A DNA stretch of 40,760 nt from an uncultured Lachnospiraceae bacterium (GTDB lineage Bacteria; Bacillota; Clostridia; Lachnospirales; Lachnospiraceae). The DNA lies in the NCBI GenBank assembly GCA_947626965.1, contig CANQUH010000015.1:1-40760 (forward strand), written 5' to 3'. A model generated the notes under the pieces. That model did not search any database. It was not told the origin of the DNA and saw only the letters and a list, made by a program, of their open reading frames with translations. Both the position numbers and the translations under genes were made by a program. Positions 2,464-31,122 of this stretch are shown piece by piece. The first letter of the stretch is position 1; each line of letters opens with the position of its first letter.

Positions 2464-3105
2464 ATGAAAGGAAATCAAACAAAACGGCGTCTGATCCTGT
2501 CAATGTATGGCAGGCTGAAGGAGCAGGAGGCTTCGGAGATTACCGTGCGGGAATTCGCAAAAGAGAATAACTGTTCTCCGGCAGCTTTATACAGGCATTT
2601 TGAAAGTCTGGAATATCTGATCATCCTTGGATCGGTAAAATTTTTCATGGATTATATGACGGAATACGGGCGCCTGATGGACTCCGGCGGAAAGCTGCTG
2701 GAGTCCTATGTGAAAGGCTGGCAGTTATTCAACCGGTATGCGTTTGAAAGACCGGATCTGTATTATCGGCTTCTGTGGGGACATTATAATAAAGATCTCT
2801 CCGACGCGCTGGCAGAATATTTTGAATTGTTTCCCACGAAAGGGTCAGAGCAGTATCCGGCTTACTTTTACACGCTGCTGTTTACAAGCGATATCAGGGA
2901 AAGAGATTTTCTGGTGCTGAGGCGGGCGGTCAATTACGGTATGCTGTCCTATGAGGACGCGGTTTATTTCAGCAGCTCCAACACACTGCTTGTAAAAGGA
3001 ATGCTGGAAATGTATATGGGGTGCAGCCGGGAGGAAAGGAAGCAGGGGGAGGAGACATGCAACCGGCTGCTTCTGAGGAATCTGGGCAATGTAATTTACA
3101 GATGA
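2464..3105 (+). CDS. TetR/AcrR-family transcriptional regulator (copy 1)
   Basis: A 213-residue regulator with a TetR-type N-terminal helix-turn-helix at about residues 20-52 (ITVREFAKENNCSPAALYRH). A helical ligand-binding domain follows. It is closely similar over its whole length to the second regulator at 6340-7005, roughly two thirds or more identical by eye, including YRHFE.LE.LIILG and the WQLFN.YAFERPDLYYRLLWG core. The start lies 8 bases after the methyltransferase stop, so it is the third gene of that operon and probably autoregulates it. Ligand unknown; the local catabolic substrate is a reasonable guess. Confidence 0.85.
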   Translation: MKGNQTKRRLILSMYGRLKEQEASEITVREFAKENNCSPAALYRHFESLEYLIILGSVKFFMDYMTEYGRLMDSGGKLLESYVKGWQLFNRYAFERPDLYYRLLWGHYNKDLSDALAEYFELFPTKGSEQYPAYFYTLLFTSDIRERDFLVLRRAVNYGMLSYEDAVYFSSSNTLLVKGMLEMYMGCSREERKQGEETCNRLLLRNLGNVIYR

Positions 3106-6339: not shown

Positions 6340-7005
6340 ATGGCTGGATATGAGAAAGGGAATAAAACAAAAAAACGTCTGATTATGGCGATGTATGAGA
6401 AATTAAAGACGCAGGAGGCGTCGGAAATCACCGTACGTGAGTTTGCCGGGGAGAATGGCTGTTCACCCGCAGCTTTATACCGTCATTTTGAAAACCTGGA
6501 ACATCTGATCATTCTCGGCGCGGTAAGATTCTTTATCGATTATATGACGGAATACGGAAAACTGATGGATTCCAGCAGTGATCCGCTGGAATCCTACATC
6601 AGAGGATGGCAGCTGTTCAACAAGTATGCGTTTGAGCGGCCGGATCTGTATTATCGGCTTCTGTGGGGACAGTACAACACAACATTTTCAGAAGCGCTGG
6701 AAGAGTATTTTGAACTGTTTCCCATGACAGGATCGGAACAGGATCCGGCATATTTTTATACGATGATGTTTACAAACGATATCATGGAGCGCGATCTTCT
6801 GATGCTGAGACGGGCGGTGAATGAAGATATGCTGTCTTATGATGATGCTGTCTATTACAGCAAATCGAATACACTGATCGTAAAAGGAATGCTGGAATTG
6901 TATATGGATCGTGATCTGGAGGAGAGGAAACAGGGGGAGCAGGAATGCAATCAGCTGCTTCGGAAAAATTTTGAGAAAGTGTATGCCTTGCGGGATAAAG
7001 ATTAA
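6340..7005 (+). CDS. TetR/AcrR-family transcriptional regulator (copy 2)
   Basis: A 221-residue TetR-type regulator and paralogue of the one at 2464-3105. The HTH (ITVREFAGENGCSPAALYRH) is almost identical in the two proteins, so they may recognise similar operators. Differences concentrate in the ligand-binding half and the charged C-terminus. The gene has its own promoter at 6252-6280; the ATG at 6340 is preceded by a poor ribosome site (AGGTGAAGT). It lies between the catabolic cluster and a MATE exporter whose promoter is nearly a copy of its own, so autoregulation together with control of the exporter is the simplest model. Confidence 0.85.
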   Translation: MAGYEKGNKTKKRLIMAMYEKLKTQEASEITVREFAGENGCSPAALYRHFENLEHLIILGAVRFFIDYMTEYGKLMDSSSDPLESYIRGWQLFNKYAFERPDLYYRLLWGQYNTTFSEALEEYFELFPMTGSEQDPAYFYTMMFTNDIMERDLLMLRRAVNEDMLSYDDAVYYSKSNTLIVKGMLELYMDRDLEERKQGEQECNQLLRKNFEKVYALRDKD

Positions 7006-10086: not shown

Positions 10087-11697
10087 ATGGCGAAACGCTT
10101 TAATGTTACAGGGGCCTGCAGTCCGCGATTTCATTATATGGTGAACATAGAACAGCGTCTCAGGGATATCCGGCGTATGGTTGACCGCGGCGATTATTTT
10201 ACAATCAACCGTGCCCGCCAATATGGAAAGACAACTACTTTGGGTGCGCTGGAAAGATTCCTTCAGGATGATTATGTGGTGATTCATACAGATTTTCAGA
10301 TGCTTAGCAGTGAGGATTTTGCGAGTGAGCAGATGTTCGTAAGGGCTTTTGTGAAAGCGCTGCTCAGAGCCGTTGAGGGGAACTCCTGTGTATCCGGGGA
10401 TATTATTCAGGGGCTTGAAAGGTTTGCAGAAGCAGATGCTGTTTCAGGCAGGTTGTCTGAACTGTTTCCATATCTGAGCGGCTGGTGCGGACAATCTCCC
10501 AGGCCGGTTATCCTGATGATTGATGAAGTTGACAGTGCTTCCAATAATCAGGTTTTTATAGATTTTCTTGCCCAGCTCAGAGGATACTACCTGCTGAGAA
10601 CTTTAAAAGATGTTCCCACATTCTGGTCAGTTATTCTGGCCGGAGTTCATGACATTAAACATATAAAAGGGAAAATCAGCAGGCAGACGGAGCCAAATCA
10701 GAGACACGGGGATAACAGCCCCTGGAATATAGCGGCTGATTTTCTGATTGATATGAGCTTTGACAAAGACGGAATAAAGGGTATGCTGGATGATTATGAA
10801 AAAGATTATCATACCGGAATGGACACAGATCAGATAGCGGAATTGCTCTATGAGTATACGTCGGGTTATCCGTATCTTGTATCACGGATCTGCAATATCA
10901 TGGATGAAAGGCTTTTGATCAGTGCCGGATATCCTGATTTGAAAACCGTATGGACGAAGGAGGGATTTCTGGAATCTGTCCGTCTGTTTCTTTCAGAAAA
11001 GAACAGCCTTTTTGAGTCGCTGATTAATAAACTGACTGATTATCCGGAGCTTGGGGATGGATTGTATGATCTTCTGTTTTCAGGAAAAAGCATTGTTTAT
11101 AATCCTGATGCGGAAGATATTTCTGCAGCGCAGATGTTTGGATTTATTAAGGAAAGCGAAGGAACTGTCGTAATCGCAAACCGCATTTTTGAAATACGGC
11201 TGTATAATTATTTTCTTTCTTCTGCAGAAATTCAGAACAACAGTCTGCACAGATCAGCAATACAGGATAAAAATCTGTTTATTGAAAATGGCCGTTTAAA
11301 TATGCGGATGGTGCTGGAACGATTTACTGTTCAGTTTACCAGTTTATATGGCAGCCATCCAGAGAGGTTTCACGAAGAAGAAGGCAGAAAATATTTTCTT
11401 ATGTTTTTGCGGCCGATTATCAATGGGACAGGAAATTACTATATTGAACCGCAGACCCGGACAGCGACCCGTTCAGATGTGATTGTTGATTACAGAGGAG
11501 AGCAGTTTGTAATCGAACTGAAAATATGGAGAGGTCAGGCTTATCATGCAAAAGGAGAAAAGCAGCTTGTGGATTACCTGAAATATTATCATCTGAAAAC
11601 GGGATATATGCTTACTTTTAATTTCAATGAAGAAAAGACCACAGGGATAAAAGAAGTTTTTACTGAAGGAAAATATTTAGTAGAAGCATTTGTATGA
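10087..11697 (+). CDS. AAA-like ATPase with C-terminal PD-(D/E)XK nuclease-like domain
   Basis: A 536-residue protein matching the AAA-ATPase_like / PDDEXK_9 architecture. A Walker A variant RQYGKTT has its lysine at residue 48, and Walker B ILMIDEVD has Asp146-Glu147. The C-terminal region has the nuclease-fold pattern VIVD (Asp468) followed by VIELKIW (Glu477, Lys479) and a GEKQLVDYL helix, as in PD-(D/E)XK proteins. Such proteins are numerous in gut Firmicutes and Bacteroidetes; their role is unknown, with roles in mobile DNA or defence proposed only from fold. The gene is visibly richer in A+T than its neighbours and has no functional partner nearby, suggesting acquisition by transfer. 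The ATG at 10087 has only a weak upstream site (GAAGGGAAG about 12 bases away). Confidence 0.8.
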   Translation: MAKRFNVTGACSPRFHYMVNIEQRLRDIRRMVDRGDYFTINRARQYGKTTTLGALERFLQDDYVVIHTDFQMLSSEDFASEQMFVRAFVKALLRAVEGNSCVSGDIIQGLERFAEADAVSGRLSELFPYLSGWCGQSPRPVILMIDEVDSASNNQVFIDFLAQLRGYYLLRTLKDVPTFWSVILAGVHDIKHIKGKISRQTEPNQRHGDNSPWNIAADFLIDMSFDKDGIKGMLDDYEKDYHTGMDTDQIAELLYEYTSGYPYLVSRICNIMDERLLISAGYPDLKTVWTKEGFLESVRLFLSEKNSLFESLINKLTDYPELGDGLYDLLFSGKSIVYNPDAEDISAAQMFGFIKESEGTVVIANRIFEIRLYNYFLSSAEIQNNSLHRSAIQDKNLFIENGRLNMRMVLERFTVQFTSLYGSHPERFHEEEGRKYFLMFLRPIINGTGNYYIEPQTRTATRSDVIVDYRGEQFVIELKIWRGQAYHAKGEKQLVDYLKYYHLKTGYMLTFNFNEEKTTGIKEVFTEGKYLVEAFV

Positions 11698-11714: not shown

Positions 11715-11743
11715 TTGACAAGGCATAAGCGAATGCATATAAT
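11715..11743 (+). promoter_or_regulatory. Consensus sigma-A promoter of the glycine riboswitch operon
   Basis: TTGACA (11715-11720), a 17-base spacer and TATAAT (11738-11743) match both consensus hexamers exactly. It begins 17 bases after the ATPase stop and drives the long leader that holds the riboswitch. Such a strong promoter fits control exerted mainly by the downstream RNA switch. Confidence 0.88.
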
Positions 11744-11864
11744 TTAACAGAAGAGACAGAAATTCTTCGGCCTTTGCAGGCGAAGAGATGAACTGAAAAA
11801 CAATATAGAACAGGAATACGTCAGGATCCCTGATTCTGGCGGTGATTATTCGGATGATGGAACC

Positions 11865-12010
11865 GGGAGAGACTGCGGATGCAGCGCCGAAGGGGCAGGC
11901 AAAAACTCTCAGGCAAAAGGACCGGTTTCGGACGAAACTCTGGAAAGCGCACGCGCACCGACGAAGCAATCCGCAGCTGCGGAGAATCTTACAGGTCTAC
12001 AGACAGAGGC
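11865..12010 (+). promoter_or_regulatory. Tandem glycine riboswitch
   Basis: Two consecutive glycine aptamers are recognisable. The first carries GGGAGAGAC, GCGCCGAAGGGGCA and CTCTCAGGCAAAAGGACC. The second starts with CTCTGGAAAGC and carries GCACCGACGAAGCAA, ATCTTACAGG and ACAGACAGAGG. These are the hallmark conserved loops of the gcvT-type tandem element, which binds glycine cooperatively. The P1 stem of aptamer 2 pairs CTCTG (11938-11942) with CAGAG (12004-12008). An intrinsic terminator follows within 11 bases. The RNA therefore controls the amidohydrolase and two membrane proteins downstream. Most such elements switch genes on with glycine; the direction here is uncertain. Confidence 0.92.
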
Positions 12011-12020
12011 AGTAAATCTA

Positions 12021-12070
12021 AAAAGTGTCTGAAAATGCGCGGAGTTTCCGAATATTTTCAGACACTTTTT
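12021..12070 (+). terminator. Riboswitch expression-platform terminator
   Basis: A perfect 16-bp stem (12021-12036 with 12054-12069, core GTGTCTGAAAAT / ATTTTCAGACAC) is capped by a small CGGA/TCCG hairpin and followed by TTTTTGTGTT. TGTCTG at 12026-12031 in its 5-prime arm is also complementary to CAGACA at 12000-12005 at the 3-prime edge of aptamer 2, a possible antiterminator. Confidence 0.9.
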
Positions 12071-12129
12071 GTGTTGCAGGAAACTGTCGTCTCAAAGGCA
12101 GGGACCGAACTTATGAAGGAGGGAACAAT

Positions 12130-13344
12130 ATGAATGTACAGGATATTTTGAAAGAGGCGTCGGCGCTGCAGCCGCATCTTCAGTCAGTCAGAAGGGAACT
12201 TCACCGTCATCCGGAGGTGGGGTTTGACTTGGAGAACACAAAAGCTTTGGTAAAAAAGGAACTTGCGGCTATGGGGTATGAACCGCAGGACTGCGGGAAA
12301 TCAGGTGTGATCGCTCTGGCAGGCGGGAAAAAACCGGGTAAGACCATCCTGCTTCGCGCGGATATGGATGCGCTTCCGGTCGGAGAGGAAGCAGAGGTGG
12401 ACTATAAGAGTGAAATCGAGGGGAAGATGCACGGTTGCGGCCATGACATGCATACGGCGATGCTGCTCGGAGCTGCAAAGCTGCTGAAAGAACATGAAGA
12501 TGAGATCGAAGGAACGGTTAAGCTGGAATTTCAGCCGGCGGAGGAAATTTTCCAGGGATCTCCGGATATGATTGCGTCGGGACTTCTGGAGAATCCGAAG
12601 GTTGACGCCGCGATGATGATTCATGTAGTGGCGGGAATGCCGATGCCTTCCGGCATGCTGCTGGTGCCGGGTGGAGGAATCTCAATGGCTTCCTGCGAGC
12701 AGTATCACATCACAGTAAAAGGAAAAGGCGGTCACGGTTCCACTCCGCATGTGTCGATCGACCCGATCACGGCGGCCGCCCATATTCATCTCGCATTGCA
12801 GGAGATTAACAGCCGCGAGATTGACGGAAATGATTTCGGTGTGTTTACGACCGGACATTTCGAGGCGGGCAAGGCGTCGAATGTCATCCCGGACACCGCG
12901 GAGATGTGGGGCACGATCCGGACGACGGATCCGGACAACAAAGTCGGCGAGCTGATCCGAACCCGTATGACGGAGATCACAAAAGGTGTCGCCATGGCGC
13001 TGCGCTGTGAGGCGGAAGTGGAATTTTATGATTTCTGCCCCTGCATGATGATCAATCCGGAGCTGGCGGCGGATCTGATGAAGTATATGAAGGAGCTGCT
13101 TGGGCCGGCAGTGGTCGATCTGGCTGTCGTGTCCGGCGGCAAGGCGGGAGGCGGCAGCGAGGATTTCGCGTTTGTGAGCCATAAGGTGCCGACTGTCAGC
13201 ATGTTCCTTACGACAGGAAACACGCAGGAAGGATATCTCTACGGTCAGCATCATCCGAAGGTGAGGTATGACGATTCCGTGCTGTACTGCGGCAGCGCAG
13301 CCTATGTGCAGATGGCGCTGCGGTGGCTGGAGGAGCACAAATAA
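12130..13344 (+). CDS. M20-family amidohydrolase (hippurate/N-acyl-amino-acid hydrolase type)
   Basis: A 404-residue cytoplasmic metalloamidase of the M20 family, closest in motif content to hippurate hydrolases and IAA-amino-acid hydrolases, which release a free amino acid from an N-acyl conjugate. Metal-site motifs are complete: HGCGHDMH (Cys103, His105), QPAEE (Glu138/139), MIHVV (His165) and GQHHPK (His374/375). RELHRHPE and LLRADMDALP are typical N-terminal signatures. The ATG at 12130 has AAGGAGGG 6 bases upstream; a longer frame starting at 12025 runs through the terminator hairpin and is rejected. Sitting behind a glycine riboswitch, its substrate is plausibly an N-acylglycine or glycine-containing dipeptide, which is inference. 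Confidence 0.9.
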   Translation: MNVQDILKEASALQPHLQSVRRELHRHPEVGFDLENTKALVKKELAAMGYEPQDCGKSGVIALAGGKKPGKTILLRADMDALPVGEEAEVDYKSEIEGKMHGCGHDMHTAMLLGAAKLLKEHEDEIEGTVKLEFQPAEEIFQGSPDMIASGLLENPKVDAAMMIHVVAGMPMPSGMLLVPGGGISMASCEQYHITVKGKGGHGSTPHVSIDPITAAAHIHLALQEINSREIDGNDFGVFTTGHFEAGKASNVIPDTAEMWGTIRTTDPDNKVGELIRTRMTEITKGVAMALRCEAEVEFYDFCPCMMINPELAADLMKYMKELLGPAVVDLAVVSGGKAGGGSEDFAFVSHKVPTVSMFLTTGNTQEGYLYGQHHPKVRYDDSVLYCGSAAYVQMALRWLEEHK

Positions 13345-13398
13345 AACGATATCGGGGCCAAAGATGCCAAACGGATTGTTCCGTGCTTCGCGTCTTCA

Positions 13399-13450
13399 CT
13401 CCGTTGCGGTCGGTGCTGGACGAGCGCCACTGGCGCTCAGCACTCTACAA
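13399..13450 (+). repeat. Structured intergenic repeat (copy 1)
   Basis: GAGCGCC/GGCGCTC (13422-13428 with 13432-13438) is flanked by GTGCT/AGCAC, forming a strong hairpin between the amidohydrolase and the first membrane protein gene. The sequence from TCCGTTGCGGTCG to CAGCACTCT can be aligned with 34483-34530. It may adjust relative expression within the operon by termination or processing. Confidence 0.5.
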
Positions 13451-13550
13451 TCCTGCCCAGGATCCGGGCAGCAAAAGAAAATTCCGGCAAAAGAGAACGT
13501 GCGCCGTTAAAAGCGCATCACAAAAAACATAAGGAAAAGGAGAGGAAGAT

Positions 13551-14261
13551 ATGGTAAAAGGTTCCGTTGTGGCGGGAAGCCCGCTGCTGTATATTCTGAT
13601 CGCGATCGGACTGATCTACGTTGTGGTCATCGCGGTGATCAGCGCCAGGCGCGCGGCAAAAAGATGCCGGGAACTTGGCATCACAAAAGAAACGATTAAT
13701 AATGTGATCAAGGCAAGCATCACTTCGGCGATTGTGCCGAGTATCGCTGTCCTTCTGGGATTTGTCACGCTGAGCGTTACGCTCGGGGCGGCCTGGCCGT
13801 GGTGGCGTCTGTCGGTTATCGGCTCGCTTTCCTATGAAGTCATGGCCTCGCAGTACACGGCGGACGGAATGGGGATCGCGCTGTCAAGCGTGCTTTCCTC
13901 CGACGCGAACGTATTCGGGGCAATCATTCTCGTCATGACGATCGGCGTCATGATTGAGCCGCTGGCGGTTGTGATCCTCGCAAAAAAATATTCGACCGGC
14001 CTTATGAAGGCAAGCGGATCAAGCGACTGGGGACAGATCCTCTCGGGCGTATTTTTCCTCGGGATGTTCGCGGTCTATCTTCCGATCATGATGTTCACGG
14101 ATCTTCCGACGACGCTGACGCTGGTCACAAGTCTGATTGTCACGGTGCTGTGCGGAATCGCGTCGCAGAAAGCGGCGTGGCTGGGGAACTTTACAATGGC
14201 GATTGCACTGATTGTCTCGATGAGCTCGAGCGTGCTGTGGGTATCGCTTTTCGCGAAATAA
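13551..14261 (+). CDS. DUF5058-like polytopic membrane protein
   Basis: A 236-residue membrane protein with about six hydrophobic segments. It resembles the DUF5058 family of Clostridia, recalled from memory rather than searched. After an N-terminal helix (residues 9-28) comes a basic loop (ARRAAKRCRELGITKETINNV), then TM2 near 54-75, and the rest is almost entirely hydrophobic. GGAGAGG precedes the ATG. It follows the amidohydrolase by about 206 bases containing a hairpin repeat and precedes another small membrane protein by 20 bases; the pair probably forms one transporter complex. Function is not established. Given the glycine riboswitch upstream, transport of glycine, a glycine conjugate or a small peptide is a reasonable hypothesis. 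Confidence 0.75.
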   Translation: MVKGSVVAGSPLLYILIAIGLIYVVVIAVISARRAAKRCRELGITKETINNVIKASITSAIVPSIAVLLGFVTLSVTLGAAWPWWRLSVIGSLSYEVMASQYTADGMGIALSSVLSSDANVFGAIILVMTIGVMIEPLAVVILAKKYSTGLMKASGSSDWGQILSGVFFLGMFAVYLPIMMFTDLPTTLTLVTSLIVTVLCGIASQKAAWLGNFTMAIALIVSMSSSVLWVSLFAK

Positions 14262-14281
14262 TGTAAGGAGGGGGAAATACA

Positions 14282-15025
14282 ATGGCTAAGAAAAACAGTC
14301 CGTCATCCAAAGTCCAGCTTGACCCGTATGTGGAGTGGTCCCACCATTTCGGACGCGTCACGCTGACCACTTTTATCATTTACATGCTGCTTGTCCCGAT
14401 CATTACCTGCGCGGTCTATCACTGCTTCCCGAGCATTTCCACGATGATCCCCGGGCTTGTCACGATTCTGATTATCATGGTGCCGACCGGGATCGCGGAG
14501 GTCGGAGGCTACACGCCGATTCTCGGATCTTCAAGTTATCTGACCTTTGCGACCGGCAATCTGATGAACCTGAAAATGCCGTGTGTGCTGAATGCGCAGA
14601 AGCTCGCGAAGGTGGATCAGGGAACGCCGGAAGGCGACGCAATTGCGCTGATCGCGACTGCGGTATCCTCGATTGTGACGATCGTCATCATGGCGCTTGG
14701 TCTGCTGCTGATCGTGCCTCTGCAGCCTCTGATGAACAATGAGTATGTCGCGACGGCGGCCAACTATATCATGCCGGCGCTGTTCGGCTGCATGGCGCTG
14801 AGCCTGTTTGGAAAAGGCGGCGGAAAGACCTACGTCAAGAACCGTCTGCTGTCCGTGGCGCTCCCGGCCGTGCTGGTGGCTCTGCTGACGATTTTCGGCA
14901 TCGCGAATGCAGGTATGGCGAGCTGGCTGATGCTTGTCATGATTCCGCTGAGTATCCTGTGCGCCCGTATCCTGTGGAAGAAGGGCGTGGTCAGGGTTGT
15001 GCCGATGGATGAAGTGAAGAAGTAA
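14282..15025 (+). CDS. Polytopic membrane protein, probable partner of the upstream DUF5058-like protein
   Basis: A 247-residue hydrophobic protein with about six to seven predicted membrane segments after a short hydrophilic N-terminus (residues 1-30). Notable loops are GIAEVGGYTPILGSSSYLTF near residues 64-83 and the gate-like stretch ATGNLMNLKMPCVLNAQKLAKVDQGTPEGD near 84-113. Glycine-rich and small-residue patterns suggest a re-entrant or transport core. The ATG at 14282 has AAGGAGGGG 9 bases upstream and lies 20 bases after the previous stop, so the genes are translated together. I do not recognise a named family with certainty. With its partner it is the candidate permease of the glycine-riboswitch operon. 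Confidence 0.7.
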   Translation: MAKKNSPSSKVQLDPYVEWSHHFGRVTLTTFIIYMLLVPIITCAVYHCFPSISTMIPGLVTILIIMVPTGIAEVGGYTPILGSSSYLTFATGNLMNLKMPCVLNAQKLAKVDQGTPEGDAIALIATAVSSIVTIVIMALGLLLIVPLQPLMNNEYVATAANYIMPALFGCMALSLFGKGGGKTYVKNRLLSVALPAVLVALLTIFGIANAGMASWLMLVMIPLSILCARILWKKGVVRVVPMDEVKK

Positions 15026-15223: not shown

Positions 15224-15252
15224 TTGACAATCTCCGGGAAACGTGTTATATT
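15224..15252 (+). promoter_or_regulatory. Promoter of the large surface-protein gene
   Basis: TTGACA (15224-15229), a 17-base spacer and TATATT (15247-15252) make a near-consensus promoter about 345 bases upstream of the ATG. The first palindromic operator begins only 7 bases after the -10 box, so it covers the transcription start. Confidence 0.85.
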
Positions 15253-15595: not shown

Positions 15596-18500
15596 ATGAA
15601 ACACAGTACAAAAAACAAAATTCTGTCTGTGATTGTTGCAGCGTCCATGATTGTCAGTCTTGTTCCCGTCCCGCTTTATGCGGCGGAGGCTGACATTGTG
15701 GAAGCAGACAGCGATTATGAAGTAGTGGGAGAGAGTCCCAGCCTGGAAAATGTGACGGCAGGAACGGTTCAGGAATCCAACGAAGAGTCTGTGGTTTTGC
15801 AGGAAGAAATTATTTCCGGCGAGGGTAGTTCGGAAATCAGGGAAGAACCTGTCCTTGAAACGGAAAATTTGGAGAATAGTCTGGATGAGGCGGAAACGTC
15901 CGGCTCAGAAGAGGATATTTTATCCACGATTCTGGAAAATGATCTGGAACTGCAGGAAATCAGCATTGACGGGATTGAAGAAGCGGAGAGCGAACCGGAT
16001 CTGGTCAGTGAAAACGGAGCGCTTCCGGCGGCCGAAGAGACGGATTATGCGCTGATGAATATTCCTTATGAGAAATTTTATCAGGCGGTCGGAACTGCGG
16101 CAGGCGCGGATTATGACGCCATGAGTTCCGCGACGAACAAGGTCGGAAACTACGGCAAGGCCGGAGGAGCTTTCCACTCGGCAAAGACGGCTGAAGTCGG
16201 AGCAGACAATACGGTTACCGCGGTTGGCGGGGCAAACGGCGCGAAGAATGAAGGCGTGACCTGGCCGGTCAAAATAAGCGCGGGTGCGAAAGGTAAATTA
16301 AGTGCGTTTGGCGGCACAGAGATCACCAGTGAGTCAAAGGTTACAACAGCCACGCTTGGGCGCGGAAGCACAAGCGCCAGCTATCTTGTCAGCTATGAAG
16401 CGCTGACGGAGGCGCCTGCTTACTCTTACTATTATTTGAGCGGTGAGCCGACGAACTATCTGACGCTTGATGTGGACAGCCAGAATCAGCCGCAGTTTTC
16501 GACGGGAAAAAGCACCGCAGTTTCCGGAAGTGCGGCTGAGATTGCAGACAGTTACGGCACGCATCACGCGGATGTGCAGCTGGTGATCGAGGCGGCTTCC
16601 CAGGATATGGGGGACAAGCTGATCAATGCCGTAGTTATCACCACGAGTGACGGAAGCACCGGTCTGATACATGTAAGCAACATCTGGGCGGCCAACGAAC
16701 TTGGATGGAATGTGATTCCTGGCCCGGATCTGGGAGGGAAAACAATTACCGGAATCCGCTATTACTGCAGCGTCAAGGATGACAGCGTTGGGGAAGACAA
16801 CAGCGGAGCGCCGGACTATCAGAACTATATTTACGAGTATTCGGTAAGTAAAGCGGTCAAAAAATATAACAACGCGGAAAGTCTCAAGGCAGAATTTGAC
16901 GGGAGCAGTTCAGTGACGGTGACCGGACTCCCGGCGGATATCCAGAACCCGAAAGCGACCGTATACCATACGGACGGGGGAAGACCGGCGACCCTTACCT
17001 ACCTGACTCCAGCGACAACGGATGGGGACGGCAATACGGTTCCGGAAGAGGTGAAGATCGAAAACGGAAAGATCGCGCTTGCGTCAGGGCTGGTTGACCA
17101 GACGGAATATACGATTGCGGTCAGCAGTGACAATTATGCTTTCAAAACATTCACGGAGGTATACACTGCAGAGGCGGAATACGCTCTGATGAATATTCCT
17201 TACGCGGAGTTTTATCAGGCCGTCAGTGTTTCCGGCAGCGCGGATTATGACGCCATGAGCTCCGCGACGAACAAGGTCGGAAACTACGGTATGGCCGGAG
17301 GAGCCTTCCACTCGGCAAAGACGGCTGAGGTTGGAGCAGACGGCGCAGTTACCGCGGTCGGCGGAGCGAACGGGGCAAAGAATGAAGGTGTGATCTGGCC
17401 GGTCAAGATAAGCGACAGTGCAAAAGGCAAGCTGAGCGTGCTCGGCGGTACGGAAGTCACCGACCGGTCCAAAGTCACAACGGCCACGGTGGGACGCGGA
17501 AATACAAGCGCCAGCTATCTGGTCGGATATGAGACTCTGACGGAGGCGACTGCATATTCCTACTATTATCTGAGCAGCGAGCCTGCAAACTACCTGACAC
17601 TGAATGTGGACAGCCAGAATAAAGCGCAGTTTACAACAGGAAAGAGCAGCGGCGGGAATAGCGGTACGATAGAGATCACAGACAGCTACGGCACGCATCA
17701 CGCGGACGTGCAGCTGGCGCTCAAGGAAACTCCTGAGGCTGTGAGCAGCAGCCTGATCAATGCGGTAGTCATTACCACAGAAGACGGAAACAGCGTCGGC
17801 CTGGTACATGTAAACAACATCTGGCTGACGAGCGAGCTTGGCTGGAACGTGGGCAGCGGTCCGGATCTGGGAGGAAAGACAATTACAGGAATCCGCTACT
17901 ACTGCAGCGTCAAGGACGACAGCGTAGAGGCAGACAACAGCGAAGCGCCGGCCTATCAGAACTATATTTACGAGTATTCGGTAAATAAGGCAGTCAAAAA
18001 GTATAACAATGCGGAAAGTCTCGAGGCGGAGTTTGACGGAAGCAGTTCTGTCACGGTGACCGGACTCCCGGCGGATATCCAGAATCCGAAAGCGACCGTA
18101 TACCATACGGATGGGGGAAGACCGGCGACCCTTACCTACCTGACTCCGACGACAACGGATGGGGACGGCAATACGGTTCCGGAAGAAGTAGCCGTGGAAA
18201 ACGGAAAGATTGCGCTTGCGTCAGGGCCGGCTGACCAGACGGAATATACGATTGCGGTCAGTAGTGATAATTATGCGTTTGCAACATTCACGGTAACATA
18301 CACAGCGCCGGAGACGGAGAAACCTGGAACGGACAATCCTGAAACGGAGATCAAGCACACAGTGACCTACAATGCCAACGGACAGAAAGATGTCAAAAAC
18401 ATGCCTTCTGACAGTACATCCTATGAAGCAGGAAAGAGCGCGGAAGTAAAAGGAACACCTGTCAGCAAGACGAAATTCTTTGTGGGATGGAACACACAGG

Positions 18501-19057
18501 CAGACGGAAAAGGAACAGCATACAAAGCAGGCGGTAAAGTTAAAATGACGGCCGACGTTACACTGTACGCGCAGTGGAAAGATGCGTACACAGCTTCGAA
18601 GCTGACCTATAAAGTGTCCGGGTATAATCAGGTGACATGCACTGGAACTACCGGAAAGAACCAGACTTCGATTAAGATTCCGGCTAATGTAAAATATTCC
18701 GGGATCACATACAAAGTAACTTCCGTCGCGAAAAAGGCATTTGCGAATATGGCGAAACTGAAAACCGTTACGGTTGGAAACAATGTGAAGACGATCGGAA
18801 ACAAAGCGTTTTTCAAGTGCGCGAAACTGAGCAGAGTCACGATCGGAACAGGTCTTGTGACGATCGGGAAGAATGTGTTCAACAGCGCAAAGAAAGGCTG
18901 CGTGATTACAATCAGCAGCAAAAAGCTGAGCACTGTAAAAACGGCGGTCAACAAAGGAACCGAAAACATGACGGTAAAGGTTCCGAAGGGCAAACTTAAA
19001 GCCTATAAGAGCCTGCTTCAGAAAACTGCAAAAGATGTCACAGTAGAAGCAAAATAA
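15596..19057 (+). CDS. Large secreted repeat protein (Tp47-like repeats, InlB repeat, BspA-type LRR)
   Basis: A 1153-residue exported protein. A signal peptide spans residues 1-30 (KNKILSVIVAASMIVS, cleavage near PLYAAEA). Residues 31-145 are strongly acidic. Two tandem repeats of about 377 residues start near 150 and 527 (YALMNIPY..FYQAV, DAMSSATNKVGNYG) and recall the penicillin-binding Tp47 domain-C-like proteins of Clostridia (family from memory). Residues about 920-997 are a Listeria-Bacteroides (InlB B-type) repeat (TVTYNANG, FVGWNTQADGKG, TLYAQW). Residues about 1000-1150 resemble BspA-type leucine-rich repeats (KAFANMAKLKTVTVGNNVKTIG). There is no LPXTG motif. GGAGGAGG precedes the ATG. 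It is a probable host or mucin-surface interaction protein, monocistronic and under three palindromic operators; the ligand is unknown. Confidence 0.85.
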   Translation: MKHSTKNKILSVIVAASMIVSLVPVPLYAAEADIVEADSDYEVVGESPSLENVTAGTVQESNEESVVLQEEIISGEGSSEIREEPVLETENLENSLDEAETSGSEEDILSTILENDLELQEISIDGIEEAESEPDLVSENGALPAAEETDYALMNIPYEKFYQAVGTAAGADYDAMSSATNKVGNYGKAGGAFHSAKTAEVGADNTVTAVGGANGAKNEGVTWPVKISAGAKGKLSAFGGTEITSESKVTTATLGRGSTSASYLVSYEALTEAPAYSYYYLSGEPTNYLTLDVDSQNQPQFSTGKSTAVSGSAAEIADSYGTHHADVQLVIEAASQDMGDKLINAVVITTSDGSTGLIHVSNIWAANELGWNVIPGPDLGGKTITGIRYYCSVKDDSVGEDNSGAPDYQNYIYEYSVSKAVKKYNNAESLKAEFDGSSSVTVTGLPADIQNPKATVYHTDGGRPATLTYLTPATTDGDGNTVPEEVKIENGKIALASGLVDQTEYTIAVSSDNYAFKTFTEVYTAEAEYALMNIPYAEFYQAVSVSGSADYDAMSSATNKVGNYGMAGGAFHSAKTAEVGADGAVTAVGGANGAKNEGVIWPVKISDSAKGKLSVLGGTEVTDRSKVTTATVGRGNTSASYLVGYETLTEATAYSYYYLSSEPANYLTLNVDSQNKAQFTTGKSSGGNSGTIEITDSYGTHHADVQLALKETPEAVSSSLINAVVITTEDGNSVGLVHVNNIWLTSELGWNVGSGPDLGGKTITGIRYYCSVKDDSVEADNSEAPAYQNYIYEYSVNKAVKKYNNAESLEAEFDGSSSVTVTGLPADIQNPKATVYHTDGGRPATLTYLTPTTTDGDGNTVPEEVAVENGKIALASGPADQTEYTIAVSSDNYAFATFTVTYTAPETEKPGTDNPETEIKHTVTYNANGQKDVKNMPSDSTSYEAGKSAEVKGTPVSKTKFFVGWNTQADGKGTAYKAGGKVKMTADVTLYAQWKDAYTASKLTYKVSGYNQVTCTGTTGKNQTSIKIPANVKYSGITYKVTSVAKKAFANMAKLKTVTVGNNVKTIGNKAFFKCAKLSRVTIGTGLVTIGKNVFNSAKKGCVITISSKKLSTVKTAVNKGTENMTVKVPKGKLKAYKSLLQKTAKDVTVEAK
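16040..18300 (+). repeat. Two long in-frame direct repeats inside the surface-protein gene
   Basis: 16040-17170 and 17172-18300 encode the two ~377-residue repeats. Many stretches are identical in DNA, for example around 16916-17040 and 18050-18180, so the duplication is recent or homogenised by recombination. Unequal crossing-over could change the copy number. Confidence 0.85.
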
Positions 19058-30662: not shown

Positions 30663-31102
30663 GCTTTCTTAGACTCCCATGCCCGCGTTGCGGGCATTAT
30701 CATGAATGAAAGCTCTCCGGATTGCTCCGTTGCTCTGCAACTCTCGCAATCCTTGTCATGTATTCGCAAATCGCATCACTCACATCCGTTCGTGATTGCT
30801 GTTTTGCTCATACATGTCAGCGTCTCTTATGCATAGTCAGTCTGGCAAGCAAACTTGCCGCCTGTCTCTGCATAGAGACAGAGCTTTCTTAGACTCCCAT
30901 GCCCGCGTTGCGGGCAACACCATGAGTGAAAGCTCTTCGGATTGCTCCGTTGCTCTGCAACTCCCGCAATCCTTGTCATGTATTCGCAAATCGCATCACT
31001 CACATCCGTTCGTGATTGCTGTTTTGCTCATACATGTCAGCGTCTCTTATGCATAGTCAGTCTGGCAAGCAAGCTTGCCGCCTGCCTCTGCATAGAGACA
31101 GA
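30663..31102. repeat. Two tandem 220-bp structured repeats
   Basis: Unit 1 is 30663-30882 and unit 2 30883-31102; they differ at about 8 of 220 positions, and the first 8 or so bases of a third unit follow. Each unit is full of inverted repeats: GCCCGC/GCGGGC, GGATTGC/GCAATCC enclosing GTTGC/GCAAC, CATGTAT/ATACATG, GGCAAG/CTTGCC and CTCT-GCAT-AGAG. Short open frames cross it but have no ribosome sites. It may be an insertion-like repeat family or a structured RNA; function unknown. Confidence 0.9.
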
Positions 31103-31122
31103 GCTTTCTCAGTAAAAAATAC

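What the first reader, a model, noticed from the sequence alone, without database searches (positions are those of the whole stretch)
11715..15025. Glycine riboswitch controlling an N-acyl amidohydrolase and an uncharacterised two-protein membrane system
A consensus promoter, a clear tandem glycine aptamer and a 16-bp terminator precede an M20 amidohydrolase of the hippurate-hydrolase type. Two small polytopic proteins, one DUF5058-like, follow. Usual glycine riboswitch targets are gcv genes and amino-acid symporters. Here the implied pathway is uptake (or export) of a glycine conjugate or glycine peptide through a new two-subunit carrier, followed by release of glycine. N-acylglycines such as hippurate and glycine-conjugated bile acids are plentiful in the gut.
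Basis: partly seen in the sequence, partly recalled or inferred. Interest (0 to 1): 0.75.

Follow-up and report, generated by a model that had tools for sequence, protein, structure and literature searches.

The report
Glycine riboswitch on hydrolase-membrane-pair operon
A bacterium has put its only detected glycine-sensing RNA switch in front of a gene for an amide-cutting enzyme and two uncharacterised membrane proteins, and a similar arrangement turned up in a second, distant branch with another gene order, which suggests a glycine-repressed system for scavenging glycine from larger molecules.

Summary
In detail: a 12/12 promoter, a glycine aptamer (RF00504, 66.9 bits), a weaker second aptamer and a 16-bp terminator precede an M20D amidohydrolase, a DUF5058 protein and a partner without a Pfam or NCBIfam family. 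DUF5058 and partner are adjacent in 79 of 80 named loci; an M20 gene is near in 62 of 80. Glycine riboswitches precede this operon in two distant clades with different gene orders: window plus sister genome (tandem aptamer, M20 first), and Falcatimonas, a Pseudobutyrivibrio MAG and a Lachnospiraceae MAG (single aptamer, DUF5058 first). In these five genomes it is the only RF00504 match. Two other genomes carry the operon divergent from riboswitched gcv genes. The terminator overlaps the aptamer's P1 in 13 of 13 gcvT leaders (ON type), 0 of 12 symporter leaders and 0 of 5 operon leaders (predicted OFF). Best reading: glycine represses uptake and cleavage of a glycine-yielding peptide or N-acylglycine. 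Against it: most relatives examined, including the closest, lack the riboswitch; substrate, transport and direction of control are untested. 'DUF5058' occurs in no paper of the held library.

The parts
11715..11743 (+). sigma-70-type promoter, perfect -35 and -10 hexamers, 17-bp spacer
   Evidence: 12/12 matches
11854..11934 (+). glycine aptamer 1
   Evidence: RF00504 66.9 bits (gathering 32); the best-scoring of 24 compared aptamers is a gcvT-leader aptamer of the same genus, 68/79 identical
11938..12010 (+). degenerate glycine aptamer 2 (P1 5' strand at 11938, P1 3' strand ending about 12008)
   Evidence: covered by the tandem model RF03166, 91.4 bits in all, sub-threshold; not matched by RF00504; positions
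12000..12031 (+). proposed antiterminator: CAGACA 12000-12005 with TGTCTG 12026-12031
   Evidence: pair probability about 0.2 when the transcript ends at or just after 12031, about 0.8 when it reaches 12041; there -25.4 kcal/mol free against -22.4 with P1 enforced
12022..12068 (+). intrinsic terminator hairpin followed by a U-rich tail
   Evidence: 16 outer pairs, -24.9 kcal/mol; 13-nt gap to P1
12130..13344 (+). M20D amidohydrolase, 404 aa (P0005)
   Evidence: dN 0.002 / dS 0.22 against sister genome G301
13347..13461 (+). dispersed repeat inserted between M20 and DUF5058 genes
   Evidence: 44 matches in the own genome; absent in G301
13551..14261 (+). DUF5058 membrane protein, 236 aa (P0001)
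   Evidence: PF16481 170 bits; dN/dS about 0.05; mostly helical model, pLDDT 71.5
14282..15025 (+). partner membrane protein, 247 aa (P0002), no named family
   Evidence: no Pfam/NCBIfam family; adjacent to DUF5058 in 79 of 80 named loci; helical model, pLDDT 79.4

Best explanation
A glycine-repressed scavenging operon. SHOWN by sequence: the leader carries a glycine aptamer and a terminator; DUF5058 and its partner are a conserved adjacent pair; an M20 hydrolase is usually near; the riboswitch is present upstream in two distant clades. INFERRED from folding: without glycine the 5' arm of the terminator pairs with the 3' side of aptamer-2 P1 (antiterminator) and the operon is read; with glycine P1 forms, the terminator forms, and transcription stops. 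INFERRED from family and context: DUF5058 plus partner form a two-subunit secondary carrier that brings in a small amide containing glycine (a dipeptide or an N-acylglycine), which the presumably cytoplasmic M20D enzyme cuts to release glycine; glycine then closes the loop.
For: Two clades far apart in the DUF5058 tree carry the riboswitch (fewest changes of the label 3), with different gene orders and aptamers nearest to different kin: window to gcvT leaders, the other clade, after one another, to symporter leaders. In the five genomes with it there is one RF00504 match each, on this operon, and no convincing gcvT. The terminator overlaps P1 in 13 of 13 gcvT leaders, in 0 of 12 symporter leaders that have a terminator (13 examined) and in 0 of 5 operon leaders; folds that exclude P1 are favoured in the window and three relatives. 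Pair adjacent 79 of 80, M20 within 1.6 kb on the same strand 62 of 80 named loci, while TIGR01891 genes over cut-off number only 1 to 4 in each of 7 genomes searched. In L154 and L161 the operon is divergent from riboswitched gcvT-H-PA-PB-lpd and followed by lplA/lipA. Strong purifying selection on all three proteins.
Against: Of 80 named DUF5058 loci only 3 have the riboswitch directly upstream; of 36 order loci none (one 14.3-bit match at E 0.99 in L065). The window's closest relatives L132-L135 (58-86% identical) have none, and for L132 and L134 none anywhere in the genome; L138 and L166, inside the second riboswitch clade, also lack it. One gain with two losses fits the tree as well as two gains. 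In the window aptamer 1 is the conserved one, and L139-L141 have a stem 3' of the aptamer (type-1-like, my reading), both of which PMC6944388 links with gcv (ON) contexts. The window antiterminator is weak (probability about 0.2) until the transcript reaches 12041; energies are MFE predictions without the ligand term, and gcvT leaders were not run through that folding test. No call tests transport or substrate. Glycine genes (gcv, glyA, lipoate genes) occur in only 3 of 118 loci.
Confidence: 0.5

Rival explanations
1. ON switch with detoxification or export: high glycine turns the operon on and the pair exports glycine or a glycine derivative.
For: The window aptamer is nearest to gcvT aptamers; aptamer 1 conserved and type-1-like singlets go with gcv contexts in PMC6944388 (passages read); in two genomes the operon lies beside the gcv operon.
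Against: P1 and terminator do not overlap in 5 of 5 operon leaders but do in 13 of 13 gcvT leaders; an exporter gives no clear role to a hydrolase that is near the pair in 62 of 80 loci.
Confidence: 0.13
2. The riboswitch is real and OFF, but the substrate holds no glycine: the operon supplies another amino acid or nitrogen, and glycine is only a signal of amino-acid plenty.
For: Most relatives examined lack the riboswitch; neighbours differ widely: tryptophan-synthase-like genes in L131 (same contig as L138 by length), probable glutamate synthase genes in L165/L166 (guessed from size, not tested), a PALP enzyme in L092; different M20 branches go with different branches of the pair.
Against: A glycine-specific RNA precedes the operon in two clades, and gcv genes adjoin in a third branch.
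Confidence: 0.25
3. The riboswitch controls only the M20 gene in the window; the membrane pair is expressed separately and its nearness is incidental.
For: 206-bp gap with a dispersed repeat between M20 and DUF5058.
Against: In L139-L141 the riboswitch directly precedes DUF5058; the sister genome lacks the repeat; M20 is near the pair in 62 of 80 loci.
Confidence: 0.1

Closest known systems
Glycine riboswitch on sodium:alanine symporter genes (agcS/SAF), e.g. Streptococcus pyogenes (PMC5829553, passages read)
   Same: Glycine aptamer; terminator apart from P1 in symporter leaders of related genomes as here; predicted repression by glycine; target includes membrane proteins
   Different: Target here is a hydrolase plus a two-protein membrane pair that matches no symporter family; in the window the aptamer is nearest to gcvT aptamers
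Glycine riboswitch on gcvT operons, e.g. Bacillus subtilis (PMC5666159, passages read)
   Same: Tandem aptamer and terminator; aptamer 1 of the window nearest to gcvT leaders of its genus
   Different: gcvT leaders compared have the terminator overlapping P1 (13 of 13), the window does not
amhX (COG1473, M20D) under tandem SAM or T-box RNAs in Bacillota (PMC12452182, passages read)
   Same: An M20D amidase controlled by amino-acid-related leader RNAs
   Different: Other ligands; no DUF5058 pair mentioned in the passages read
AbgAB-AbgT (aminobenzoyl-glutamate utilisation), recalled; the only call is a PDB sequence hit of the M20 protein to 3io1
   Same: M20D hydrolase coupled to a dedicated carrier
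   Different: AbgT is a single large carrier (recalled); here two small proteins. Relation to AbgT beyond the Pfam and PDB-sequence searches not tested

Membership tests
Glycine riboswitch (RF00504) | score over gathering cut-off | tested here: met
   66.9 against 32 bits, aptamer 1 only
Glycine riboswitch (RF00504) | binds glycine | not testable with these tools
   no binding assay
glycine-GGAnGA variant (RF03166) | score over gathering cut-off | tested here: not met
   91.4 against 110 bits
Glycine OFF switch | terminator does not overlap P1, unlike gcvT leaders | tested here: met
   gap +13
Glycine OFF switch | antiterminator that excludes P1 | tested here: inconclusive
   favoured by 3 kcal/mol in MFE at transcript end 12041, but probability about 0.2 at shorter lengths
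Glycine OFF switch | glycine lowers expression | not testable with these tools
   no assay
M20D amidohydrolases (TIGR01891) | score over curated cut-off | tested here: met
   318.1 against 153.75 bits
M20D amidohydrolases (TIGR01891) | conserved C/H/E motif residues | tested here: met
   H101, C103, H105, E138, E139, H165 conserved in at least 93% of 30 aligned M20 proteins; their role as metal ligands is recalled
Carboxypeptidase CpsA equivalog (NF040868) | score over curated cut-off | tested here: not met
   333.2 against 500 bits
Hippurate hydrolase (function) | cleaves N-acylglycine | not testable with these tools
   no assay
DUF5058 (PF16481) | score over gathering cut-off | tested here: met
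   170.1 against 28.2 bits
Any Pfam or NCBIfam family for the partner | score over cut-off | tested here: not met
   the 60 rows of A7 scanned against Pfam give only scattered weak matches
Known fold for the partner | significant structural match in PDB | tested here: inconclusive
   no Foldseek match with E <= 0.001; monomer model pTM 0.62
Known fold for DUF5058 | significant structural match in PDB | not tested
   model made (pLDDT 71.5, pTM 0.51); search machine busy

The most novel reading that the evidence does not exclude
DUF5058 and the unnamed partner are the two subunits of a new secondary-carrier family built to feed M20 amidohydrolases with small amides, found in Clostridia and Treponema; in two Clostridia branches it became the sole detected target of glycine riboswitch control in the genome, by independent capture of a gcvT-like and a symporter-like aptamer, making a glycine-scavenging pathway outside the known glycine regulon.
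Probability: 0.42. Interest if true: 0.75.

Novelty: new variant of a known kind. Interest (0 to 1): 0.6.

Why it matters
It gives two protein families without a known function (one without even a family name) a concrete, testable role, and adds a hydrolase-plus-membrane-pair module to glycine riboswitch targets, which in the passages read are glycine cleavage and metabolism, glycine or alanine transporters, serine metabolism and, from metagenomes, malate synthase and phosphoserine aminotransferase. Because the RNA's ligand is known, it narrows the search for the substrate of an otherwise unassignable pair that is widespread: 84 of 397 genomes of the window's family carry DUF5058 over cut-off.

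Tried and rejected
Considered and rejected: glycine-GGAnGA variant riboswitch (sub-threshold; aptamer 1 matches RF00504). DUF5058 and partner as homologues of one another: hhalign probability 0.2. Relatives in the PDB by sequence: nothing meaningful for DUF5058 (three weak Prp31 hits), none for the partner. Other leader RNAs at operons without the glycine riboswitch: Rfam at gathering on 25 of 80 named loci gave, besides the three glycine hits, cobalamin, T-box, THF, FMN, tRNA and group II intron matches; on 22 of 36 order loci tRNA, 6S and one cobalamin match and no RF00504. I did not study whether any of these serves the operon. A first geometry script (35 leaders) misassigned P1 or the terminator in some symporter leaders (3 negative gaps, 1 without terminator); the rule was made stricter and rerun on 31 leaders, dropping L106, L122, L125 and L128, whose downstream gene was neither gcvT nor symporter nor this operon. 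The 26 comparison leaders come from the 30 loci that one search listed and from L154/L161; they include near-identical relatives and are not independent. Model R1 was built with the window and L139-L141 in it, but these four had been found by Rfam first.
Full report
WHAT IS THERE. The window (G000:C15 in the held genome) carries, from 11715 to 15025 on the + strand, a perfect promoter, a glycine aptamer (RF00504, 66.9 bits), a degenerate second aptamer seen only through the tandem model RF03166 and below its cut-off, a 16-bp terminator, an M20D amidohydrolase, a DUF5058 protein and a partner without any Pfam or NCBIfam family. Against the sister genome G301 the three coding regions differ by 112 nucleotides, 102 of them in synonymous codons; dN/dS is about 0.01, 0.05 and 0.03.

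THE PAIR AND ITS HYDROLASE. In 295 genomes of the order, DUF5058 was found in 40 (36 over cut-off) and the partner in 38. On wider stretches the partner adjoins DUF5058 in 35 of 36 order loci, 79 of 80 named loci and 35 of 35 family loci, and an M20 gene lies on the same strand within 1.6 kb in 22 of 36, 62 of 80 and 27 of 35. Two main M20 sorts occur: the M20D sort of the window (42-58% identical) and a longer sort (PF01546) with a likely N-terminal membrane helix that I recall as PM20D1/Cps1-like; a third, divergent sort is rarer. TIGR01891 genes over cut-off number 1 to 4 in each of seven genomes, so this nearness is far from chance.

THE RIBOSWITCH IN OTHER GENOMES. Of 30 riboswitch loci listed for 60 related genomes, 13 lead into a symporter gene, 11 into gcvT, 2 into this M20 gene (window and G301) and 4 into none of these. 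Of 80 named DUF5058 loci, three have a glycine riboswitch directly upstream of the operon: L139 (Lachnospiraceae MAG RGIG970), L140 (Falcatimonas sp. MSJ-15) and L141 (a Pseudobutyrivibrio MAG), first found by Rfam at gathering and again with an aptamer model. There the order is DUF5058, partner, M20, not M20 first as in the window. They lie in another clade than the window, one that also holds L138 and L166 without the riboswitch (a quick tree of 60 rows, 59 of them from A6, which uses 58 of the 80 loci; fewest changes of the label 3). The window aptamer scores best against gcvT-leader aptamers (68/79 identical to L105); those of L139-L141 are nearest to one another and then to symporter-leader aptamers. 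This suggests two separate captures, though one gain with two losses fits the tree equally. In two further genomes, L154 and L161 (Roseburia hominis An869 by record title), the M20-DUF5058-partner operon is divergent from a riboswitched gcvT-gcvH-gcvPA-gcvPB-lpd operon and is followed by lplA and lipA genes (gene names from my reading of the sequences, gcvT backed by PF01571). In L132 a glyA-like gene lies two genes upstream (name from my reading). Such glycine genes occur in 3 of 118 loci in all.

Against this, the riboswitch is rare: the closest relatives of the window, L132 to L135, have none, 36 order loci have none beyond one noise-level match, and no new case came from 63 further stretches.

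ONE SWITCH PER GENOME. In G000, G301 and the genomes of L139, L140 and L141 the riboswitch on this operon is the only RF00504 match, and gcvT was not found except for a weak fragmentary match in G301 (49 bits). Sodium:alanine symporter genes were found in four of these five, with only a fragment in the L140 genome, so they are not under a detected glycine riboswitch there. G000 is 89% complete, and MAGs can miss genes.

ON OR OFF. In B. subtilis gcvT, glycine turns the operon on through a terminator that forms without glycine (PMC5666159, passages read); in S. pyogenes the symporter gene is repressed by glycine (PMC5829553, passages read). I measured the gap between the 3' end of P1 and the strongest terminator in 31 leaders: gcvT -3 to -6 nt in 13 of 13 (they overlap, so P1 and terminator exclude one another); symporter +20 to +96 in 12 of 13, with no terminator found in the thirteenth; this operon +13, +13, +72, +118 and +51 in 5 of 5. 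Folding of the transcript up to the terminator loop places the terminator's 5' arm in a structure that excludes P1, in the window (-25.4 against -22.4 kcal/mol with P1 enforced, at transcript end 12041; at shorter ends the antiterminator has a probability of only about 0.2) and in L139-L141 (-45.4/-31.4, -48.4/-42.7, -55.1/-46.8). gcvT leaders were not put through this folding test. This is the layout of an OFF switch. A conflicting cue: PMC6944388 (passages read) links conserved aptamer 1 and 3' ghost aptamers with gcv contexts, and both cues occur here.

MECHANISM. Best reading: low glycine lets the operon be read; the pair imports a glycine-bearing amide; M20D frees glycine; glycine shuts the operon. 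Feedback repression suits supply, not disposal. The carrier role is inferred from two small helical membrane proteins with strongly conserved motifs (for example W84, R86, S88, G91, Y95, E96 in 59 of 59 DUF5058 rows; Y86, T91, G92, K98, P100 in 60 of 60 partner rows) and from the nearness of a hydrolase. AlphaFold models are mid-confidence and helical (partner pLDDT 79.4; DUF5058 71.5); the partner has no significant PDB match and the DUF5058 model could not be searched. No call bears on the true substrate.

LITERATURE. 'DUF5058' occurs in 0 papers of the held library. 'Glycine riboswitch' with 'peptidase' gives 16 papers (15 listed; only the listing and abstract starts seen), none of the listed titles pointing to this operon. 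Broader any-two-term searches with hippurate, M20, amidohydrolase or hippurate hydrolase listed 25 of 8,063 and 10 of 1,103 papers, none of those listed holding 'glycine riboswitch'. PMC3766115 sorts glycine riboswitch targets into glycine metabolism, glycine transporters and serine metabolism (passages read). PMC12452182 lists the M20D gene amhX under tandem SAM or T-box RNAs (passages read). The library lacks most subscription papers, so earlier mention cannot be excluded.

Noticed in passing
window 30709-30887 and 30929-31107 (- strand): Two tandem copies of Clostridiales-1 RNA (RF01699, 91.8 and 96.6 bits), inside a 239-bp direct repeat that is 95% identical.
   Followed up: no
window 13347-13461: A 115-bp dispersed repeat with 44 matches in the own genome; inserted between the M20 and DUF5058 genes here but absent at this site in sister genome G301.
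   Followed up: partly
window 15596-19057: 1153-aa protein with two 1.1-kb tandem copies (83% identical DNA) and matches to the Shr-like haemoglobin-interacting domain, List_Bact repeats and LRR_5; it follows the operon behind a second promoter-like site at 15224-15252.
   Followed up: no
window 2466-3073 and 6354-6961: Two related genes (79% identical DNA) without any Pfam match at 1e-4, lying on either side of a sodium:solute symporter gene.
   Followed up: no
window 10087-11697: 536-aa protein with weak AAA-type ATPase matches and a C-terminal PD-(D/E)XK-like domain, directly upstream of the promoter.
   Followed up: no
L165 and L166: The DUF5058-partner-M20 operon follows two long genes (about 1517-1553 and 497 aa) that by size look like glutamate synthase subunits (a guess); no riboswitch detected.
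   Followed up: no
L183-L211: A second branch of the DUF5058 pair, most of it beside a longer M20 enzyme (PM20D1/Cps1-like, recalled); its regulation and substrate are unexplored.
   Followed up: partly
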